From Leucothrix arctica (lineage in GTDB: Bacteria > Pseudomonadota > Gammaproteobacteria > Thiotrichales > Thiotrichaceae): DNA of 64,000 bases. Shown here in pieces: positions 34,110-41,608 of this stretch. Each line of letters begins with the position of its first letter. Position 1 is the stretch's first letter. Under the pieces are notes generated by a model. The model saw only the letters and a list, made by a program, of their open reading frames with translations, was not told where the DNA came from and did not search any database. A program made the position numbers and the translations under genes. Location: contig NZ_QGKL01000042.1 in the NCBI RefSeq assembly GCF_003172895.1, positions 620,001 to 684,000 on the forward strand, written 5' to 3'.

Positions 34110-35378
34110 TTATGCAGCCTGCTTCATCAATCTGTTTGCTTGACGCTGCTGAAGCTCGCTACCACCTTCGATAACTTCTTCTAAAACTGATTTTGCAGAC
34201 TCAAAATCTGACACTTCTAAATAGGCTTTCGCCATATCTAACTTAAGGTCCATTTCGAGACTACCTTCATCAAACATTTTATAGACATTTTCTTCTGGCT
34301 CACTAACTGCTGATTGACTAAAGCCTCTTTCTAAAGATGAATCATCACTCTCTAGTAAATCATCGTAACTGTTTTCAGGTAGAGCCACCTTCTCATCGGC
34401 AACTATACTTACACCATCTGTTTCTTTACGGCGAGTCGACAATAGCGCAACTAGTATTAGGGACAATAGTGCTCCACCAGCAACCATACTCCAGATAGGT
34501 AGTTTAAATCTATCGTTAAACATAACAATACTGTTATTACCCTCAGCATCACCAAAATAATGAACACCAGGCTGAGCATCATCAATTAGAGCATTAAGTT
34601 GCTCATTCTCTTGAGTCAACTGCGCAATAGTTCTATCTGCTTGTTTCTGTATTTCACGGTTATCTGAAAGATCTGACTGAGCCGCTTCAAGCTGAGTCTT
34701 CAGATTTAGTGTTTCATTTCTCACATCATCAAGCTGCTGCTGTAGTGCTTCAACCTGAGATAGGTCTGCAGGCGACAGCGGTGCACCCTGATTATTCTTC
34801 AGAAGCTTGGTCACTCTAATTATCTCTGAATCAAGTAGTCTCAACTGTTCATCAGATTGCTTACTCTGGTTTTCCAATAAAGAGACTCGTTGAATTAACC
34901 TTGCATTTTCTCGCTTCAGGCCAGCAACCTGAGCAATCAAACTTGTTCGCTCTGCCTCTAAAAAGACTAATCGATCTTGAACACCTAACTTATTAGTATC
35001 CGCTTTTGCAGGTGTAATTTTCAGTGTATTGGCGAGCTTCGCTATAGATGCATCATCCGGAGTAACGAATGTTGACTCATCTTTTAACCAGTCATTGCCG
35101 GGTAGCGATAAAAGTGCATTTCGTCTCAGCAGATTCATATTTCCGCGGACAAAAGCTTGTGGGTTTTTTTCAACAATTTCGACCATCAAACCCATTGGGG
35201 AACGCTTAGGTCCGACATAATATCGATTAACAATTTTACTCAAGGTATCGTTGGAGCGCACAGGCCCATACGCCTGGTCTGCAATAGCAGCTCCAGAATA
35301 AAACGTTAAACTTGATATAATCAGTGCAGCAGAAAGCTTACTGACATTAGAAGAAACCCGATTTGATGACGATATCAT
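34110..35378 (-). CDS. FimV-like protein B (LysM-like N-domain, coiled coil, one TM, C-terminal TPR)
   Basis: The protein has 422 residues. A signal segment (SKLSAALIISSLTFYSGAA) is followed by a FimV-type N-terminal domain: AYGPVRSNDTLSKIVNRYY, NPQAF, NLLRRNALLSLP. A coiled coil runs from about 140 to 265, one membrane helix from about 290 to 313 (SMVAGGALLSLILVALL), and the C-terminus has the FimV TPR motif MDLKLDMAKAYLEVSDFESA. FimV/HubP-type proteins organise poles and promote type IV pilus function. It follows FimV-like A after a terminator, so it is probably transcribed separately. Confidence 0.75.
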   Translation of the reverse strand: MISSSNRVSSNVSKLSAALIISSLTFYSGAAIADQAYGPVRSNDTLSKIVNRYYVGPKRSPMGLMVEIVEKNPQAFVRGNMNLLRRNALLSLPGNDWLKDESTFVTPDDASIAKLANTLKITPAKADTNKLGVQDRLVFLEAERTSLIAQVAGLKRENARLIQRVSLLENQSKQSDEQLRLLDSEIIRVTKLLKNNQGAPLSPADLSQVEALQQQLDDVRNETLNLKTQLEAAQSDLSDNREIQKQADRTIAQLTQENEQLNALIDDAQPGVHYFGDAEGNNSIVMFNDRFKLPIWSMVAGGALLSLILVALLSTRRKETDGVSIVADEKVALPENSYDDLLESDDSSLERGFSQSAVSEPEENVYKMFDEGSLEMDLKLDMAKAYLEVSDFESAKSVLEEVIEGGSELQQRQANRLMKQAA

Positions 35379-35477: not shown

Positions 35478-35507
35478 AATTCACACCCATCAAAAAAACG
35501 ATGGGTG
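35478..35507 (-). terminator. Intrinsic terminator after FimV-like A
   Basis: CACCCATC (35484-35491) and GATGGGTG (35500-35507) form 8 pairs around an A-rich loop. On the minus strand the stem is followed by TGAATTTTTT. It ends the roadblock/GTPase operon. Confidence 0.75.
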
Positions 35508-35518
35508 GTATTAAAAAA

Positions 35519-37249
35519 TCACCCTGCTAAACGTGACATTAACAATTCAGCTGAAGTTTTCTGCTGAGCGGTACCTTCCAGTAGAACTTCATGTAATAAC
35601 TCATTCGCTGCTTGGCTATCGGCCAACTCAATATAAGCCTCAGCCATTACAAGCTTTAGCTCTGAATCATCACTATTTGATGACTTAGATACTTCTGACT
35701 CTGATTGAACAGCAGGCTCATTACCTAGCTCCCCAGTCATTGATGGGTCAAGAATAGCAACTCGAGAAGGGTCTCGACGAGGCGGTACTCTTAGTGCCTC
35801 TACATCTTGATCTCTAGCATCTAAGTTACCAGCTTTAAATACTACGTCTTCCATACCAGTCGCGTTGGAGCCAACTGCTGGTATAGATTTATTTCGACGA
35901 CCTAAAATCACCATAAATGCAGCTAACCCAAGTGCTAACATCGCTAGAAGAGCACTCCATGTAGGCAAGGTAACTGAACGATTAAAAAACCCTACATTAC
36001 TGCTTTCAATTGAATCGTCACTAATTTCTGCTATCACACTTTCTTCAGGCAAGAGTCCGTCAGTAACCAATGGATCTACTTCCATCATAGAATCCATATC
36101 ACCAACGGGTGCAGCTGACGCCATCAACTCATTAACAAGCTCATCATTCTGAGACTTAAGTTCTTTTACTTCTTCTTGGTAAATAGCAATTTGCTGATTT
36201 AGATCAGCAATTGTTTTATTCGCCTCAATATTTACAGCATTACTACTAACACTAGTCGTCGCAACGACAGGAGCCGGAATTGCTTCTAACTGTTTTTCAA
36301 GATCCGTAACCGAGGCTTTCAACAACGCAATTTCTTGATCTTTTTCTACAATTAACGCAGTACTTTTATCAAGACTTTGTTTAGTTAGCTCAGCCGCTAT
36401 AAGTGCAACAGACTGTTGACTAGAACCCTGTTTGAGTGACGATGCCGACTCAACAGACTCAGTAAGTGATTCTTTTGATAGCGCTAGTGCATCATTAGCA
36501 GCTTTCAACTCAGTCTTGAGATCTGCTTCAGATGATCGTGTTACTTCAAGCAACGCCTTTAACTCAGACTCTGTGGATACAGCCTCTTCTAGCTTGACCT
36601 TTAAATCATCTAATACTTCTTGAGCTTCAACCAACTGGTCTTTTGCTGCTTCACGCTCTCCTCTCACCTTATTAAGGTTACTTTCTAAAGAAGCTAGGGA
36701 AGTATCATTACCCAGTGAAGTAGGTGCTGTATCGACAACTTTTTCAGTAACTTCTGAGAGACGAGCTTGTGCATTCTCAAAACGTACTTTCCAACTAGAT
36801 AACTCGGCTTGAGTACGCGACAAACTAATCTTTAGGTCATCACTTTCTTTATTCGCTAATCTTAAACTTTCTTGGACCGTAACTAATCGCATTCTCGACT
36901 GAACAGGCACTGGTGCAACAGGAACATTGACTACCTGCCCCCCCGTTGAACGACGAATACTATTATCATCAGGAAGGACAAGTTCAACACCCTGCTTAAG
37001 CAAGCCCATATTATTATTGATGAACGACTCCGGATTTAACCGGAATATTTCACGCATAATAACAATGTCGGAATGCGGACTGACAAGGTAGTTTTCACTC
37101 ACGATTTTACTGAGTGTCTCGCCCGGAGCGATTGGACCGTAGTTACTATCAGCCTGCGATACTGCGCTAGCAAATAGTGTTAAGCCTATCGCTGCCGACA
37201 ACGCACGAGGTTTCAATTGTAATATCAGTGAATGAGTACGATTAGTCAT
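35519..37249 (-). CDS. fimV: FimV-like protein A (LysM-like N-domain, long coiled coil, one TM, C-terminal TPR)
   Basis: The protein has 576 residues from ATG 37249; an in-frame TTG at 37261 overlaps the previous stop. After the signal peptide (cleavage near SQA/D) comes the FimV core NYGPIAPGETLSKIVSENY and MGLLKQGVELVLPD. A long Glu/Ser/Leu-rich coiled coil spans about 120-395, a membrane helix lies near 425-447 (WSALLAMLALGLAAFMVI), and the FimV C-terminal TPR (LKLVMAEAYIELADSQAA) ends the protein. It is shorter than Pseudomonas FimV (over 900). It is the last gene of the GTPase/roadblock operon, so it may be the polar landmark on which that module acts. Confidence 0.78.
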   Translation of the reverse strand: MTNRTHSLILQLKPRALSAAIGLTLFASAVSQADSNYGPIAPGETLSKIVSENYLVSPHSDIVIMREIFRLNPESFINNNMGLLKQGVELVLPDDNSIRRSTGGQVVNVPVAPVPVQSRMRLVTVQESLRLANKESDDLKISLSRTQAELSSWKVRFENAQARLSEVTEKVVDTAPTSLGNDTSLASLESNLNKVRGEREAAKDQLVEAQEVLDDLKVKLEEAVSTESELKALLEVTRSSEADLKTELKAANDALALSKESLTESVESASSLKQGSSQQSVALIAAELTKQSLDKSTALIVEKDQEIALLKASVTDLEKQLEAIPAPVVATTSVSSNAVNIEANKTIADLNQQIAIYQEEVKELKSQNDELVNELMASAAPVGDMDSMMEVDPLVTDGLLPEESVIAEISDDSIESSNVGFFNRSVTLPTWSALLAMLALGLAAFMVILGRRNKSIPAVGSNATGMEDVVFKAGNLDARDQDVEALRVPPRRDPSRVAILDPSMTGELGNEPAVQSESEVSKSSNSDDSELKLVMAEAYIELADSQAANELLHEVLLEGTAQQKTSAELLMSRLAG

Positions 37250-37257
37250 GAGAAATC

Positions 37258-37620
37258 TCAAAGAATCTTAGCAATACTTTCAGCAGCACGTTTAACATCT
37301 AAAAAGATTAAGCCTAAACGAGCATTGGGCTTAGCAAGCACCGTTACAACGGCCTCGTTTCCAGCATGTGTCATCAAAATATAACCGTGATCACCTTTGA
37401 TAAGCACTTGCTCTAGTGTACCACGAGCAAGTTCTTGAGCTGTACGATCACCTAGAGACAACATAGCAGCACTCATCGCACCGACTCTATCTTCATCCAT
37501 TGCAGCAGGCAGTAGTGCAGCCATCATTAGGCCATCCTTAGATAAAACTGCTGATGCTTCAATGTCCGCTGTTGATCCATTGAGGTCGCTTAAGATCGAA
37601 TTTAACATTTCTGCGCGCAT
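37258..37620 (-). CDS. Roadblock/LC7 domain protein
   Basis: The protein has 120 residues and is a single roadblock/LC7 domain: an N-terminal helix (EMLNSILSDLNGS), strand EASAVLSKDGLMMAALLP, helix VGAMSAAMLSLGDRTAQEL, then LEQVLIKGDHGYILMTHAG and a C-terminal helix. It resembles MglB and the CvnB proteins of conservons, which bind small Ras-like GTPases and can act as activating proteins. A matching GTPase gene lies two genes upstream in the same operon. It ends right at the start of FimV-like A. Confidence 0.82.
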   Translation of the reverse strand: MRAEMLNSILSDLNGSTADIEASAVLSKDGLMMAALLPAAMDEDRVGAMSAAMLSLGDRTAQELARGTLEQVLIKGDHGYILMTHAGNEAVVTVLAKPNARLGLIFLDVKRAAESIAKIL

Positions 37621-37644
37621 GCGTTTACTCCCGTAAAATGTATT

Positions 37645-38304
37645 TTAGTTTTTTAATGTTATGGAACTGTTTGAGCCGTAACGTCGTTCTAAAGCCCAAA
37701 TTAGTTGTGTGAATGCCGACTGGTTTAACTGCGGCATTCCACCAATAATCAAAGTGAATCGATCTTTGCCGATATATAATGGCCAAAAGCCAATCTCACT
37801 ATTTCCAGCAGCATCGATCAAACCCCATGCTCGCTGACTGTAGCCCAAATTACCTTTAAGCACATCTTTGTGCCTTTTATAAATAGCCGTCAAACTAGCA
37901 CTTAACGCTGCCAGCTCTTCCGCTGCTTCATGAGGAAAGCCTGAACTTCCCAGATACAAGCCTTGCCCTTCCGCCAAAACTGCCCGCCCATCACTCGATA
38001 GACTTTGCAACAAACCAGGCAGTAGACTTTCCAAGCTACCAGAGGGTGCTACCTCGGTATTTTTCTGACCAGCAATGAAGCCAGCATCTTGTAGTAGTTG
38101 AATAAACTCTAGCGTTTCGGTCTCATCATTTAACCCACTCAACGCTTGAGCAGCAGCCAAGTTAAACACGGGTGTTTCATCGACCGTTAACAAACGCTTT
38201 ATGAACTCACGGCCAAAACCATCAGAATCATCTTGAACAGAATAAAAACTCCCACCAGGCGTTACGCTCAAGTATAAGTCTTCACTTGAAATAAAATCAC
38301 TCAT
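37645..38304 (-). CDS. Protein with roadblock-like C-terminal half, unknown function
   Basis: The protein has 219 residues. Residues 1-80 (ISSEDLYLSVTPGGSFYSV, LIQLLQDAGFI) may be a small winged-helix-like domain. From about 90 the pattern GRAVLAEGQGLYLGSSGF, HEAAEELAALSASLTAIY and RFTLIIGGMP fits a divergent roadblock/LC7 fold. Its ATG overlaps the GTPase stop by 4 bases (ATGA), so the two are coupled and likely act together. I infer a second, asymmetric GTPase partner. Confidence 0.6.
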   Translation of the reverse strand: MSDFISSEDLYLSVTPGGSFYSVQDDSDGFGREFIKRLLTVDETPVFNLAAAQALSGLNDETETLEFIQLLQDAGFIAGQKNTEVAPSGSLESLLPGLLQSLSSDGRAVLAEGQGLYLGSSGFPHEAAEELAALSASLTAIYKRHKDVLKGNLGYSQRAWGLIDAAGNSEIGFWPLYIGKDRFTLIIGGMPQLNQSAFTQLIWALERRYGSNSSITLKN

Positions 38305-38846
38305 AATATTTCAGCTCCAGGGGCTAATGACATCAACATCGCCTGCATTAACATAGAGACATCTTCACGCTTTCGTGCGTCAACCTCAAAGACAGGTGCT
38401 GTAATTTTTAACTGATCTAACCAGTCGCGATAATCCTGCACATTGGGTACACGGTGTGTATCCATACGTGTGACACCAACAACTAGCTGCTGTGCTTCAA
38501 TGAAGTCACGAAAGGCGTGTGTATAAAATTTCAAATCTTGCTGAGGGTCTTTGCGGGAGTTGTCAATTAACAACACTAGGCCAATGCCGCCTTCCGTCAA
38601 AATATCCCACATAAAGCTAAAGCGCTCTTGGCCCGGAGTACCATATAAATGGACGCGTTCCGTATCACCCAGTTTGATCATGCCGTAATCCATAGCAACC
38701 GTAGTTGACTCTTTACGTGCACGCGTCATGTCTGATGCTTGCTCATCTGTCGTGACAATTTCAATATCACTGATTGAGCGAATGGCCGTTGTCTTGCCTG
38801 AACCAACCGGCCCTGTAAAAATTATTTTCTTATTCGCAGTACTCAT
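38301..38846 (-). CDS. Small Ras-like GTPase of the MglA/CvnD type
   Basis: The protein has 181 residues. Walker A is GPVGSGKTT (12-20), switch I lies around KESTTVAMDYG, G3 is YGTPGQERFSFMWD with a DxxG-like variant, and G4 is VTRMD in place of NKxD. The sequence between (GIGLVLLIDNSRKDP) matches the ATP/GTP-binding proteins of conservons and the wider MglA-like group. It lacks a C-terminal lipid motif, so it is soluble. Genes on both sides encode its likely partners: the receiver/winged-helix-like protein and two roadblock-type proteins. Confidence 0.82.
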   Translation of the reverse strand: MSTANKKIIFTGPVGSGKTTAIRSISDIEIVTTDEQASDMTRARKESTTVAMDYGMIKLGDTERVHLYGTPGQERFSFMWDILTEGGIGLVLLIDNSRKDPQQDLKFYTHAFRDFIEAQQLVVGVTRMDTHRVPNVQDYRDWLDQLKITAPVFEVDARKREDVSMLMQAMLMSLAPGAEIL

Positions 38847-38852
38847 TTTTCC

Positions 38853-40178
38853 TTAACCCCCAACCAAACGTTTAAGTAAACGCGAGAACAAACCACGAGG
38901 GGCTTCGGCTTTACGAGTTGTAGATTGCTTCTTAATCAATTTTTCAGGATCCATTTCGATCAAACCGAGGGTATTAGCCGCATTGTAAAAAGAGAAAACA
39001 TAACGTTGAGGAACATTTAGGGTCTTGGCCACATCAAAAGCATTCATTCCCTGAGCTGCCCATTGCGCTGCGATCGGCATTATATGCGGAAACAATGCGA
39101 CACGCGTCATACTTGGCCAATGTTTTAACCCAACCACTTTGTTAGGGTCTAAATCCCTAGGCAGTAAGCCATGAGCAGAGAGTAAAGCACTAGTCCAAAC
39201 AAATGACTCAAGGTCATATAATGAAGTACTTTGATTCGATATCAGCTCATTAAGCTCGTGAATTTCAGGTGTACTCAGAATATGCATCTTACCGCCATCA
39301 CCTGAATTACAGTCTCGGATCAGTGCTATAAAATCAGGACCATCGATTGACACCGTACAGAAAATTCGGTGAATTTCAGGCAGTACAAATATTTTTGCTT
39401 GAGGGAAGTTAAGCAACACGCCTTGCTGGCATTGCCTTGCTAACCTAACGGCATCTTTGACACTAGAGATGAAGAAACTCTCTTCTGCCTGCATGCTCAC
39501 AAGATTTGCAGAAACATCAAAATCAGGTAAATCACCACATAACTCGACCCAACGCTGTGCTTGTTGCTGATCGGTTAAACTAGTCTTTACAGGCATACTT
39601 GGTTCTACATTTTTTTCGACTGGCAAATTAACTGGGGATTGTTTGACCGACTGAGTGTCATAGTCGACAGCTTTAGTCTCTTCAACAACTTCTGCTTTGT
39701 TAACTAACGGGACACTAACAAGTACTTCCGCTTTTTTTATCACTGGACGCTGTAATGACACAGGCTTCTCAGCAACAAAAGACTCGATGTTTTTTGCAAT
39801 TTTCTGATTACTTAACTTCTCGATAGCCTCATCACTAACATCTACTTTAAGCAATGCTCTGACGGACGCTGCTGCATCCAATAATGAGCGACTTGTTAAA
39901 GGCTTTGGCAACCAAATGACGTTATCGAGAGAAACTTCAGAAATAGATAAAATAATGGCGGGCTTCTGCCATTCTTGGTACTCACTTTCGTAACGCTGAC
40001 GGGCAGGCGGAAAGTCGTAATCGATAATAAGTACATTAGCTTCAACTTGAGAGTCAACACAACGAAAAGTATGCTGCCCAAGCTTAGCAAAAAAGAAATC
40101 CAGAACGGCTCTATTATGTGTACCCACATCCTCTAGGCAAACACGCAAAGCAGAGTTCTGCTGTGATTGATCTATCAT
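38853..40178 (-). CDS. Receiver-like and winged-helix-like protein of the GTPase operon
   Basis: The protein has 441 residues. The N-terminus (about 10-120) has the strand order of a response-regulator receiver: VLIIDYDFP, PAIILSIS and WLPKPL followed by a helix, but acidic residues are not in full canonical position, so it may be a pseudo-receiver. A Val/Lys/Glu-rich linker covers about 120-200. The C-terminus (about 360-415) has AFDVAKTLNVPQRYVFSFYNAANTLG in two parts, a helix-turn-helix-like unit, and a basic tail. It is six bases from the GTPase gene. It may fill the position of conservon CvnC. Function inferred. Confidence 0.55.
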   Translation of the reverse strand: MIDQSQQNSALRVCLEDVGTHNRAVLDFFFAKLGQHTFRCVDSQVEANVLIIDYDFPPARQRYESEYQEWQKPAIILSISEVSLDNVIWLPKPLTSRSLLDAAASVRALLKVDVSDEAIEKLSNQKIAKNIESFVAEKPVSLQRPVIKKAEVLVSVPLVNKAEVVEETKAVDYDTQSVKQSPVNLPVEKNVEPSMPVKTSLTDQQQAQRWVELCGDLPDFDVSANLVSMQAEESFFISSVKDAVRLARQCQQGVLLNFPQAKIFVLPEIHRIFCTVSIDGPDFIALIRDCNSGDGGKMHILSTPEIHELNELISNQSTSLYDLESFVWTSALLSAHGLLPRDLDPNKVVGLKHWPSMTRVALFPHIMPIAAQWAAQGMNAFDVAKTLNVPQRYVFSFYNAANTLGLIEMDPEKLIKKQSTTRKAEAPRGLFSRLLKRLVGG

Positions 40179-40188
40179 TGAGTTTTTG

Positions 40189-40884
40189 TCACCCTTCCTT
40201 GGTATTTGACAATTTCCAGTCAGGACTCAGTTCTCGGCCTTGCTCCATCAGTAAAGCCAACAAACGTTCCTTACTCTCGTAATCTTTTGTATAACTGTAG
40301 ACTCTTAACAGCTCTTCTTCAGTACGAGAATCCCCTTCTGGATTCAACATTTCTTGTTCCAGTAACTCTTGCGCGACTTCAAGCTGCCCATACTCTAGGC
40401 AATCAACGGCTTCTTGATAATGACTAGTATAGCTACTTGACGCTTTAGTACTCAGGGATAATAAAGGTAATCCTTTTGAGACCAAACCTATCGACAACAC
40501 TGACCCTTCAATAAAGCGGTCATTGTAAGATTCGTCATAACCTTTCTCCAGCCAATTGGAAAAAAAGTCCTGCTCTTCTTTGACTAAGTGCGCTTGTACT
40601 CGACTATAAACCATTTGACGAAGTTTTAAGCCATTATCCTTAAGGGCTATAAATAAGTCTTGTAAGGCACCAGAAAGATGACCTTGGTCTTGATTGATTA
40701 AGATACGTTGTACCTGTACTCGTAAATCAAGCGGGTAACGTTTTACGTGGTGAGCCAAATAGCGTCGATTAGCATCTGTTGAGTCATTAGCACCCAACTG
40801 CAAAACTTTTAGGCCTTCTAAACTAAAAATAGCAGGTAGCTTATATGCGTTCGACGAATCCGAACTTGTATGGTTTACACTCAT
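40189..40884 (-). CDS. TPR-like protein, first gene of the GTPase/FimV operon
   Basis: The protein has 231 residues, no signal peptide and no membrane segment. It is predominantly helical. The C-terminal part (YQEAVDCLEYGQLEVAQELL, RVYSYTKDYESKERLLALL) resembles paired TPR-like helices such as those at FimV/FimL-type C-termini. I do not recognise the family. It begins the operon, 10 bases before the receiver-like gene, and is divergent from the bactofilin gene. Confidence 0.55.
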   Translation of the reverse strand: MSVNHTSSDSSNAYKLPAIFSLEGLKVLQLGANDSTDANRRYLAHHVKRYPLDLRVQVQRILINQDQGHLSGALQDLFIALKDNGLKLRQMVYSRVQAHLVKEEQDFFSNWLEKGYDESYNDRFIEGSVLSIGLVSKGLPLLSLSTKASSSYTSHYQEAVDCLEYGQLEVAQELLEQEMLNPEGDSRTEEELLRVYSYTKDYESKERLLALLMEQGRELSPDWKLSNTKEG

Positions 40885-41212: not shown

Positions 41213-41608
41213 ATGTTTGGAAAAAAAACCAAGTCTTTACCCCCTGTACAGCCGCGTCGTGTCGCATCACAACTGGAAGAAGATATCAAACTTGTGGGAG
41301 ATCTTTCTTTTTCAGGATTGCTACAATTAAAAGGCAATGTTTACGGCAATATCATTTCCCCGCCTGACTCTGAAGCAACCCTACTGATTGAAGAAGGCGC
41401 TACGGTAACTGGGGAGATTCGTGTTCCGTACATCCAGATCAAGGGTAAAGTCACGGGAAATGTATTTGCAAGTCATCGCATTAGCATCAAAACAGGCTCT
41501 ACAGTCATCGGTGATGTTCATTACAACGACATCGAGTTGGACCAAGGTGCACATCTATCCGGACATCTCATATCCATGAAGGAAGCTAAAGAAGAACTAA
41601 AAAGCTAA
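41213..41608 (+). CDS. Bactofilin (polymer-forming cytoskeletal protein)
   Basis: The protein has 131 residues. A short disordered N-terminus (TKSLPPVQPRRVAS) is followed by the DUF583 beta-helix with regular hydrophobic/Gly periodicity: GDLSFSGLLQLKGNVYGNI, TVTGEIRVPYIQIKGKVTGN, GSTVIGDVHYNDIELDQGAH. Bactofilins polymerise without nucleotide and position cell-wall enzymes and, in Myxococcus, polarity factors including a small GTPase pathway. That makes its place next to the GTPase operon notable. The stop overlaps the convergent ampD stop. Confidence 0.85.
   Translation: MFGKKTKSLPPVQPRRVASQLEEDIKLVGDLSFSGLLQLKGNVYGNIISPPDSEATLLIEEGATVTGEIRVPYIQIKGKVTGNVFASHRISIKTGSTVIGDVHYNDIELDQGAHLSGHLISMKEAKEELKS

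What the first reader, a model, noticed from the sequence alone, without database searches (positions are those of the whole stretch)
35519..40884. Conservon-like GTPase/roadblock operon joined to a FimV protein in a gammaproteobacterium
Six tightly packed minus-strand genes (gaps of 10, 6, -4, 24 and 8 bases, then a terminator) encode a TPR-like protein, a receiver-like plus winged-helix-like protein, a Ras-like GTPase with altered G4 (TRMD), a protein with a roadblock-like tail, a roadblock/LC7 protein and FimV-like A. GTPase, roadblock and winged-helix proteins together are the core of actinobacterial conservons (CvnB-C-D), where CvnA is a histidine kinase. Here the sensor is absent and a polar-landmark/pilus-type protein is present. 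This could be a polarity switch that couples a GTPase cycle to FimV and type IV pili or gliding.
Basis: partly seen in the sequence, partly recalled or inferred. Interest (0 to 1): 0.78.

Follow-up and report, generated by a model that had tools for sequence, protein, structure and literature searches.

The report
Small-GTPase switch operon with mini-FimV
A family of bacteria related to Leucothrix carries an operon that joins a Ras-like molecular switch and its roadblock partners to a shortened form of FimV, a protein that marks cell poles and helps place pili, so two polarity systems that are normally studied apart may here work as one device.

Summary
The six genes are real and the linkage is conserved, but they are not a conservon. 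Genes B-C-D-E match a described kind, the "Group 3 MglA" system of beta/gamma-proteobacteria: receiver/winged-helix protein, GTPase, two roadblock proteins. (1) The first gene (A) ends in a TPR unit that resembles the internal TPR of canonical FimV (hhalign 96%, E 2e-9). (2) The last gene (F) is a mini-FimV without that TPR; a second mini-FimV (G) follows past the terminator. (3) Of 63 genomes of the family (8 genera), 55 have the operon-type A; a mini-FimV follows E on the same strand in 42 of 49 assessable loci, in 7 of 8 genera. (4) A paralogue of A sits beside another mini-FimV, without the GTPase, at 15 of 15 assessable loci. Outside the family A-B-C-D-E occurs without the mini-FimV (0 of 11 assessable loci). 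Roadblock identity is confirmed for D (structure) and E (sequence). Most likely this is a GTPase switch whose TPR protein and mini-FimV dock it at the envelope to control polar type IV pili; docking and pilus control are inferred. Known kind, new variant.

The parts
40189..40884 (-). Gene A, 231 aa: N-terminal helical domain (about 36-120) plus C-terminal TPR unit (about 155-214) resembling the internal TPR of canonical FimV
   Evidence: No Pfam/NCBIfam match; AlphaFold model all-helical, pLDDT 74.6, pTM 0.47; hhalign C-term vs FimV internal TPR 96.2%, E 2.1e-9, N-term 2%, 20 column-shuffled controls at most 0.86%; whole-alignment comparison 95.4%
38853..40178 (-). Gene B, 441 aa: receiver-like N-terminus, variable linker, winged-helix-like C-terminus; the partner protein of Group 3 MglA systems
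   Evidence: Alignment A2: conserved ends, variable linker. D55 in 103 of 103 ungapped rows, position 53 D in 94 and N in 9 of 103, K92 in 101 of 106 (126 rows in all); the acidic pair at 16/17 is not conserved. Architecture as described in PMC4316618. Fold not predicted here
38301..38846 (-). Gene C, 181 aa: MglA-family small GTPase with Group 3 motifs (GPVGSGKT, TT, GTPGQ, TRMD, DAR)
37645..38304 (-). Gene D, 219 aa: N-terminal part (1-85; winged-helix-like by its secondary structure only) plus roadblock domain (88-211)
37258..37620 (-). Gene E, 120 aa: roadblock/LC7 (MglB-type) protein with a DG pair
35519..37261 (-). Gene F, 580 aa (TTG start; ATG start at 37249 gives 576 aa): mini-FimV with signal-like N-terminus (by eye), LysM-like FimV_core, coiled coil, one hydrophobic segment (by eye), FimV_Cterm; no internal TPR seen
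   Evidence: FimV_core 33.1 bits, below cut-off; FimV_Cterm 32.8 bits, above; linkage
35484..35507 (-). Terminator-like hairpin with T run after F
34110..35378 (-). Gene G, 422 aa: second mini-FimV, 140 bases downstream of F beyond the terminator; tandem pair seen only in the window's genus
   Evidence: FimV_Cterm 49.9 bits; ABCDEVV in the 5 assessable genomes of genus g1 and in no other genus; F and G copies form separate groups

Best explanation
It is a Group 3 MglA small-GTPase switch whose output side is built from FimV parts. Shown: gene identities, roadblock folds, Group 3 motifs, a FimV-like TPR in A, and conserved linkage to a mini-FimV. Inferred: C cycles between GTP and GDP. E, perhaps with D, acts as GAP or co-regulator, as MglB and MglB/RomY do for MglA. 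B, with its receiver and winged helix, takes the place of the GEF-like CvnC of conservons or of RomR and passes in the signal (in many relatives perhaps supplied by the PAS and PhnD-like proteins). C-GTP engages A, a TPR effector analogous to SgmX. A and the mini-FimV (F) together make up much of the domain set of one FimV: F anchors to peptidoglycan through LysM and shows a FimV C-terminal domain in the cytoplasm, and A supplies the missing TPR. The GTP state would thus decide whether pilus-associated proteins are gathered at a FimV-marked site (cell pole, or tip/division site of a filament), controlling polar type IV pili and surface movement or attachment.
For: A mini-FimV follows E in 42 of 49 assessable loci, 7 of 8 genera; 41 of the 42 are also matched by NCBIfam's FimV_Cterm at E <= 1e-5 on the same contig, G015 by my own profile only. 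An A paralogue lies beside another mini-FimV at 15 of 15 assessable loci (L090 and L176-L192; 3 more are cut by contig ends). A's C-terminus resembles the FimV internal TPR, and in 51 of 59 genomes the best non-A match of the A profile is the canonical FimV frame. Group 3 motifs. D and E are roadblock proteins. Four PilT-family genes over cut-off in the genome; PilT family in 29 of 30 A-bearing genomes given. Literature: MglA-GTP binds the TPR protein SgmX to promote pili (PMC7519303, passages); RomY stimulates MglB's GAP activity (PMC9481161, abstract); a mutation in an orphan MglB of Snodgrassella, whose MglA is Group 3, gives flares at the colony edge on soft agar, taken as altered pilus motility (PMC11112851, abstract and passages); MfpD acts as GAP and MfpC as likely GEF in a conservon (PMC13343842, passages); Pseudomonas FimV has an internal second TPR (PMC12918733, passages).
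Against: No interaction, localisation or motility datum for any of these proteins. Genome G034 (97% complete) has the operon with mini-FimV (L167) but no PilT-family match at E <= 1e-100. No A-negative genomes were compared for PilT, and 5 of 14 control genomes, E. coli included, also match over the cut-off. The reciprocal search with the FimV-TPR profile did not recover A in 10 genomes at E <= 0.05, so the homology is distant; A's C-terminus also resembles the FimV C-terminal domain (91.5%), and generic TPR proteins match A weakly (CTPR 3.5e-4, PilF 0.012). Cocleimonas-like genomes (0 of 6) and one of 8 assessable g7 genomes keep A-E without the mini-FimV there; 8 of 63 genomes lack an operon-type A match altogether (completeness 58-92%). 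Outside the family the mini-FimV is absent (0 of 11 complete loci with at least 4.6 kb after E). Variants exist with A, B, D, E but no GTPase match (L234, L235).
Confidence: 0.5

Rival explanations
1. The output is transcriptional: the receiver/winged-helix protein B binds DNA under control of C, D and E, and the mini-FimV only places the complex in the envelope or is one of its targets.
For: B's C-terminal winged helix was read by Wuichet and Sogaard-Andersen as a sign of transcription control; the receiver keeps the Asp and Lys positions in most rows; the Cvn8 conservon is a global regulator of specialised-metabolism genes (PMC13343842, passages).
Against: Winged helices are also protein-binding modules (recalled); the acidic pair of a canonical receiver is not conserved; the conserved FimV parts at both ends of the operon are not explained.
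Confidence: 0.22
2. It is a polarity switch for something other than type IV pili: division-site or cell-wall work, holdfast or reproductive-cell formation in these filamentous bacteria.
For: P. putida FimV binds peptidoglycan through LysM, HubP serves many clients, and P. putida FimV is likely not needed for pilus-driven movement (PMC12918733, passages); the operon is kept in G034, where no PilT-family match reached E 1e-100; a bactofilin gene lies divergently upstream of A in the window, L003 and L005.
Against: PilT family in 29 of 30 A-bearing genomes tested, though without A-negative comparison; the one Group 3 phenotype found in print points to pilus-dependent movement.
Confidence: 0.2
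3. The FimV linkage is incidental: mini-FimV genes merely lie next to the operon.
For: Absent in Cocleimonas-like genomes and outside the family; in the window G lies beyond a terminator.
Against: 42 of 49 loci in 7 genera; E and F nearly touch in the window; an independent second A-mini-FimV pair; A itself carries a FimV-like TPR.
Confidence: 0.04

Closest known systems
Group 3 MglA systems of beta/gamma-proteobacteria (Wuichet and Sogaard-Andersen 2014, PMC4316618)
   Same: Receiver/winged-helix partner with variable linker, MglA-type GTPase with GTPGQ, no Lys in G4 and DAR in G5, one or two MglB-type proteins
   Different: The sections read do not mention a gene like A with its FimV-like TPR, a mini-FimV, or the PAS and PhnD-like genes; D fuses a roadblock domain to an extra N-terminal part
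Actinobacterial conservon (CvnA-D, Group 2 MglA)
   Same: GTPase, roadblock protein and an extra partner encoded together
   Different: No histidine kinase found in the operon; different G4 (TRMD, not NxFD); not actinobacterial; FimV parts added
Myxococcus MglA/MglB/RomY with the TPR effector SgmX
   Same: MglA-family switch, roadblock regulator MglB, a TPR protein as candidate effector, type IV pili as candidate output
   Different: Group 1 GTPase with intrinsic Arg finger; SgmX is 1,060 aa and likely cytoplasmic; no FimV link in the passages seen
FimV/HubP polar landmark
   Same: F and G have a LysM-like core, one hydrophobic segment and a FimV C-terminal domain; A's TPR resembles FimV's internal TPR
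   Different: F and G are 580 and 422 aa and lack the internal TPR and most of the acidic region; the genome also has a canonical 1039-aa fimV between genes that read as truA and asd by eye

Membership tests
Group 3 MglA system | GTPase with GTPGQ G3, Thr instead of the intrinsic Arg in G2, G4 lacking Lys, DAR G5 | tested here: met
   of 53 family rows GTPGQER 51 (others GTSGQER, GTPGQQR), no Lys in G4 in 53 of 53; TT in G2 and DAR in G5 in all forms that the call lists (the six commonest: 42 and 32 of 53 rows). Window: TT, GTPGQ, TRMD, DAR
Group 3 MglA system | One or two coupled MglB-type roadblock proteins | tested here: met
   E: (3.4e-16); D: structure match
Group 3 MglA system | Partner with receiver-like N-terminus, variable linker, winged-helix C-terminus | tested here: inconclusive
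   Conserved ends, variable linker and receiver Asp/Lys positions seen; fold not predicted
Group 3 MglA system | Falls in the Group 3 clade of the MglA tree | not tested
   No named Neisseria or Xanthomonas reference sequences were fetched for a tree
Actinobacterial conservon (Group 2) | CvnA-type histidine kinase encoded in the operon | tested here: not met
   None among genes A-G in Pfam and NCBIfam
Actinobacterial conservon (Group 2) | NxFD in G4 | tested here: not met
   TRMD in the window; TRxD or TQxD in 53 of 53 family rows
FimV/HubP landmark (F, G) | FimV C-terminal domain | tested here: met
   32.8 and 49.9 bits against cut-off 30.65
FimV/HubP landmark (F, G) | LysM-like FimV core | tested here: inconclusive
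   33.1 and 36.9 bits, below the cut-off 43.45
FimV/HubP landmark (F, G) | Polar localisation | not testable with these tools
   Needs microscopy
Roadblock/LC7 (D) | Roadblock fold | tested here: met
   29 Foldseek matches at E <= 0.001: MglB, other roadblock chains (Streptomyces, archaeal), Ragulator and one axonemal chain; Z up to 11.8

The most novel reading that the evidence does not exclude
A 'split FimV' polarity switch: the domains of one landmark protein are divided between a GTPase effector (A, with a FimV-like internal TPR) and a dedicated membrane anchor (mini-FimV), so that the GTP state of an MglA-family switch decides when a working landmark is assembled at a cell pole. MglA-type and FimV-type polarity, known from different bacteria, would be one machine here.
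Probability: 0.33. Interest if true: 0.82.

Novelty: new variant of a known kind. Interest (0 to 1): 0.62.

Why it matters
FimV/HubP landmarks and MglA/roadblock switches are two well-studied ways in which rod-shaped bacteria place pili and other machines at poles, but mostly in different lineages (from recall). In the library searched here no paper holds both 'FimV' and 'roadblock', and 3 hold both 'FimV' and 'MglA' (listing only). A conserved operon joining them gives a direct, testable link, and proposes a location and a TPR effector for Group 3 MglA systems, whose output is unknown.

Tried and rejected
Conservon membership: rejected on missing kinase and G4 motif. FimV linkage limited to Leucothrix: this was the first impression from the 80 loci kept (mini-FimV in 3 of 80) and was overturned by the family search. 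FimV linkage across gammaproteobacteria: rejected for the mini-FimV (0 of 11 assessable loci; of 16 such genomes searched, 15 have one FimV_Cterm match over the cut-off, in frames of 796-1235 aa and on another contig than the operon, and 1 has none), kept for the TPR in A. Fold search with A: no Foldseek match at E <= 0.001; VIA-align best Z 8.1, over one helical domain or with very large rmsd, not above what helical repeats give commonly, so A's FimV link rests on sequence profiles only. Reciprocal search with the FimV TPR profile found only one match per genome, in the FimV frame. F and G as one recent duplication: not supported, each copy forms its own group across the genus (quick tree, long branches, weak). 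Promoter scan: 17 found, 17.8 expected, uninformative. A search for Leucothrix/Thiothrix papers with gliding, FimV or pili gave 2 papers (titles and abstract openings seen only). Search for roadblock/small GTPase with Xanthomonas, Neisseria or twitching: 138 papers, 20 listed (listing only), no Group 3 study seen beyond those cited.
Full report
What is there. The six minus-strand genes are present with the stated spacing, and a terminator-like hairpin follows F. I call them A (231 aa), B (441), C (181), D (219), E (120) and F (580), in transcription order from 40884 to 35519. A seventh gene, G (422 aa, 34110-35378), also carries FimV_core and FimV_Cterm matches and lies 140 bases beyond F. The genome is near Leucothrix: the GTPase is 88% identical to that of a Leucothrix MAG and 86% to that of L. 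pacifica, and G029, of the window's genus, has a contig of the same length (191,739) as the L. pacifica record (inference). In the same way genus g2 reads as Cocleimonas (G001, contig of 1,342,712 bases).

Identity of B-C-D-E. C is an MglA-type GTPase. Over 53 family sequences its motifs are GPVG[AS]GKT (53), GTPGQER (51), a G4 without Lys (53), and TT in G2 and DAR in G5 in all forms listed (42 and 32 of the 53 rows). PMC4316618 (abstract and sections 13-16 and 18 read) defines Group 3 MglA systems of beta/gamma-proteobacteria by such motifs together with one or two MglB proteins and a partner with a receiver-like N-terminus, a variable linker and a winged-helix C-terminus. B shows that layout in alignment, with D55 in 103 of 103 and K92 in 101 of 106 ungapped rows of 126, but no conserved acidic pair. 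E is roadblock by sequence. D is roadblock by structure, with an extra N-terminal part. The set is not a conservon: no kinase was found in the operon and the G4 differs.

Gene A. Pfam and NCBIfam do not know it. Its alignment and model (moderate confidence) show two helical parts. The C-terminal part matches the internal TPR of canonical FimV: hhalign 96.2%, E 2.1e-9, over 63 columns, against 2% for the N-terminal part and at most 0.86% for 20 column-shuffled controls; 95.4% for the whole alignment. In the 63-genome search there were 69 non-A matches in 59 genomes; 55 lie in the same open frame as a canonical FimV, and that frame is the best non-A match in 51 of 59 genomes. Limits: A's C-terminus also resembles the FimV C-terminal domain (91.5%); a narrow FimV-TPR profile did not find A in return in 10 genomes; designed and PilF TPRs match A weakly. 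Pseudomonas FimV is reported to have such a second internal TPR, absent from HubP (PMC12918733, passages).

Linkage in the family. Of 63 genomes of the order (all one family, 8 genera) 55 have an operon-type A and 8 do not (completeness 58-92%). Of the 55 loci, 6 are cut off too soon to judge. Of the 49 others, 42 have a mini-FimV downstream of E on the same strand: 19 A-B-C-D-E-PAS-PhnD-V, 2 more of that kind (one with B and C in one frame, one with two PhnD-like matches), 16 A-B-C-D-E-V, and 5 with two mini-FimVs (window's genus only). For 41 of the 42 the NCBIfam FimV_Cterm model also matches on the operon's contig; G015 rests on my own profile. By genus: g1 5/5, g2 0/6, g3 5/5, g4 6/6, g5 2/2, g6 1/1, g7 7/8, g8 16/16. 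Independently, a paralogue of A lies directly before another mini-FimV in g1, g2 and g4: 18 loci, 15 assessable, 15 with the pair. One is in the window's own genome (L090). Operon-type (47) and pair-type (15) mini-FimVs separate in a quick tree (support 97).

Outside the family. In 229 genomes drawn from the class, 25 match the A profile at E <= 1e-10; one match is in a canonical-length FimV frame (G185), leaving 24, of which 2 are from the window's family; a few of the rest are weak or partial (G070, G159). I fetched all 24 loci of the other 22 genomes. Twelve have A-B-C-D-E, several with PAS and PhnD-like genes; none has a mini-FimV, 0 of 11 with at least 4.6 kb after E. Among the 80 loci kept, the A profile matches in 29, D in 38 and mini-FimV in 3; those with A include Zoogloea and Thiodiazotropha. 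So A with its FimV-like TPR is wider, and probably older, and the mini-FimV looks like an addition in this one family. GTPase-less variants occur: A-B-D-E (L234, L235), A-D (L228, L233), and B-E-protoglobin-A-D (L236, L240).

Inputs. The PAS protein (PAS_3 1.3e-17) and the PhnD-like protein (Phosphonate-bd 1.7e-37, without an obvious signal peptide by eye) are candidate sensors. In Leucothrix the pair is detached from the operon: in G000 on contig C19 and in G028 about 1.2 Mb away.

How it may work. M. xanthus MglA-GTP binds the TPR protein SgmX to start pili (PMC7519303, passages); RomY stimulates MglB in what the paper's title calls a bipartite roadblock domain-containing GAP complex (PMC9481161, abstract); in conservons the roadblock protein MfpD is a GAP and MfpC a likely GEF (PMC13343842, passages); and a mutation in an orphan MglB of Snodgrassella, whose MglA is Group 3, gave flares at the colony edge on soft agar, attributed to pili (PMC11112851, passages). 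By analogy C is the switch, E and D regulate it, B brings the signal, A is the effector and F is the envelope anchor. That A plus F cover the main domains of one FimV is shown at the level of domains; that they bind each other is inferred. The PilT family is found in 29 of 30 A-bearing genomes tested (the 22 outside the family and 8 inside it), but G034 has the full operon without such a match, no A-negative genomes were compared, and E. coli among the controls matches too, so the pilus link is weak. P. putida FimV is likely not needed for pilus-driven movement, which also counts against taking pili for granted.

Verdict. A real, conserved module. Its GTPase core is a known kind; the FimV parts at both ends and the family-wide mini-FimV are not in the parts of papers I read, and no paper in the library holds both 'FimV' and 'roadblock' (related searches). 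New variant of a known kind.

Noticed in passing
L091:4656-7945 (G000 contig C22): A second GTPase locus in the same genome: GTPase (51% identical) with an extra C-terminal part that looks roadblock-like by eye, a 213-aa protein that also looks roadblock-like by eye (no Pfam match), a dCache/HAMP membrane protein and a LysM-like protein (by eye).
   Followed up: partly
window 41213-41608 (+): A bactofilin gene lies divergently upstream of A, also in L003 and L005. From recall, a bactofilin works with the MglA-family GTPase SofG in Myxococcus polarity.
   Followed up: no
L268:3284-4500 (G000 contig C19); L270:4056-5287: The PAS and PhnD-like pair that sits inside the operon in many relatives is detached in Leucothrix but kept as a pair.
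   Followed up: partly
L236:159-4293 and L240:8319-11666: A GTPase-less variant: B-like, E-like, protoglobin (Pfam 4.6e-21 in L236), A and D in a row, in genomes G138 and G265; an oxygen or gas sensor may feed the same parts.
   Followed up: partly
L234, L235: A-B-D-E operons with no GTPase match in the fetched stretch.
   Followed up: no
L017:11864-12235: A free CZB (chemoreceptor zinc-binding) domain protein follows E in Thiodiazotropha.
   Followed up: no
L012:9332-12782 and similar Marinobacter-type loci: A different Group 3-like layout: B, C, a 445-aa protein that by eye reads as an ABC-type ATPase fused to a phosphatase-like part, a 135-aa protein without Pfam match, then E.
   Followed up: no
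G000:C38:69851-73110: Three PilT-family genes in tandem, and a fourth on contig C2.
   Followed up: no
L149:5629-7617: B and C in one open frame, with GTSGQ in place of GTPGQ; fits physical contact of B and C, or an assembly error.
   Followed up: no
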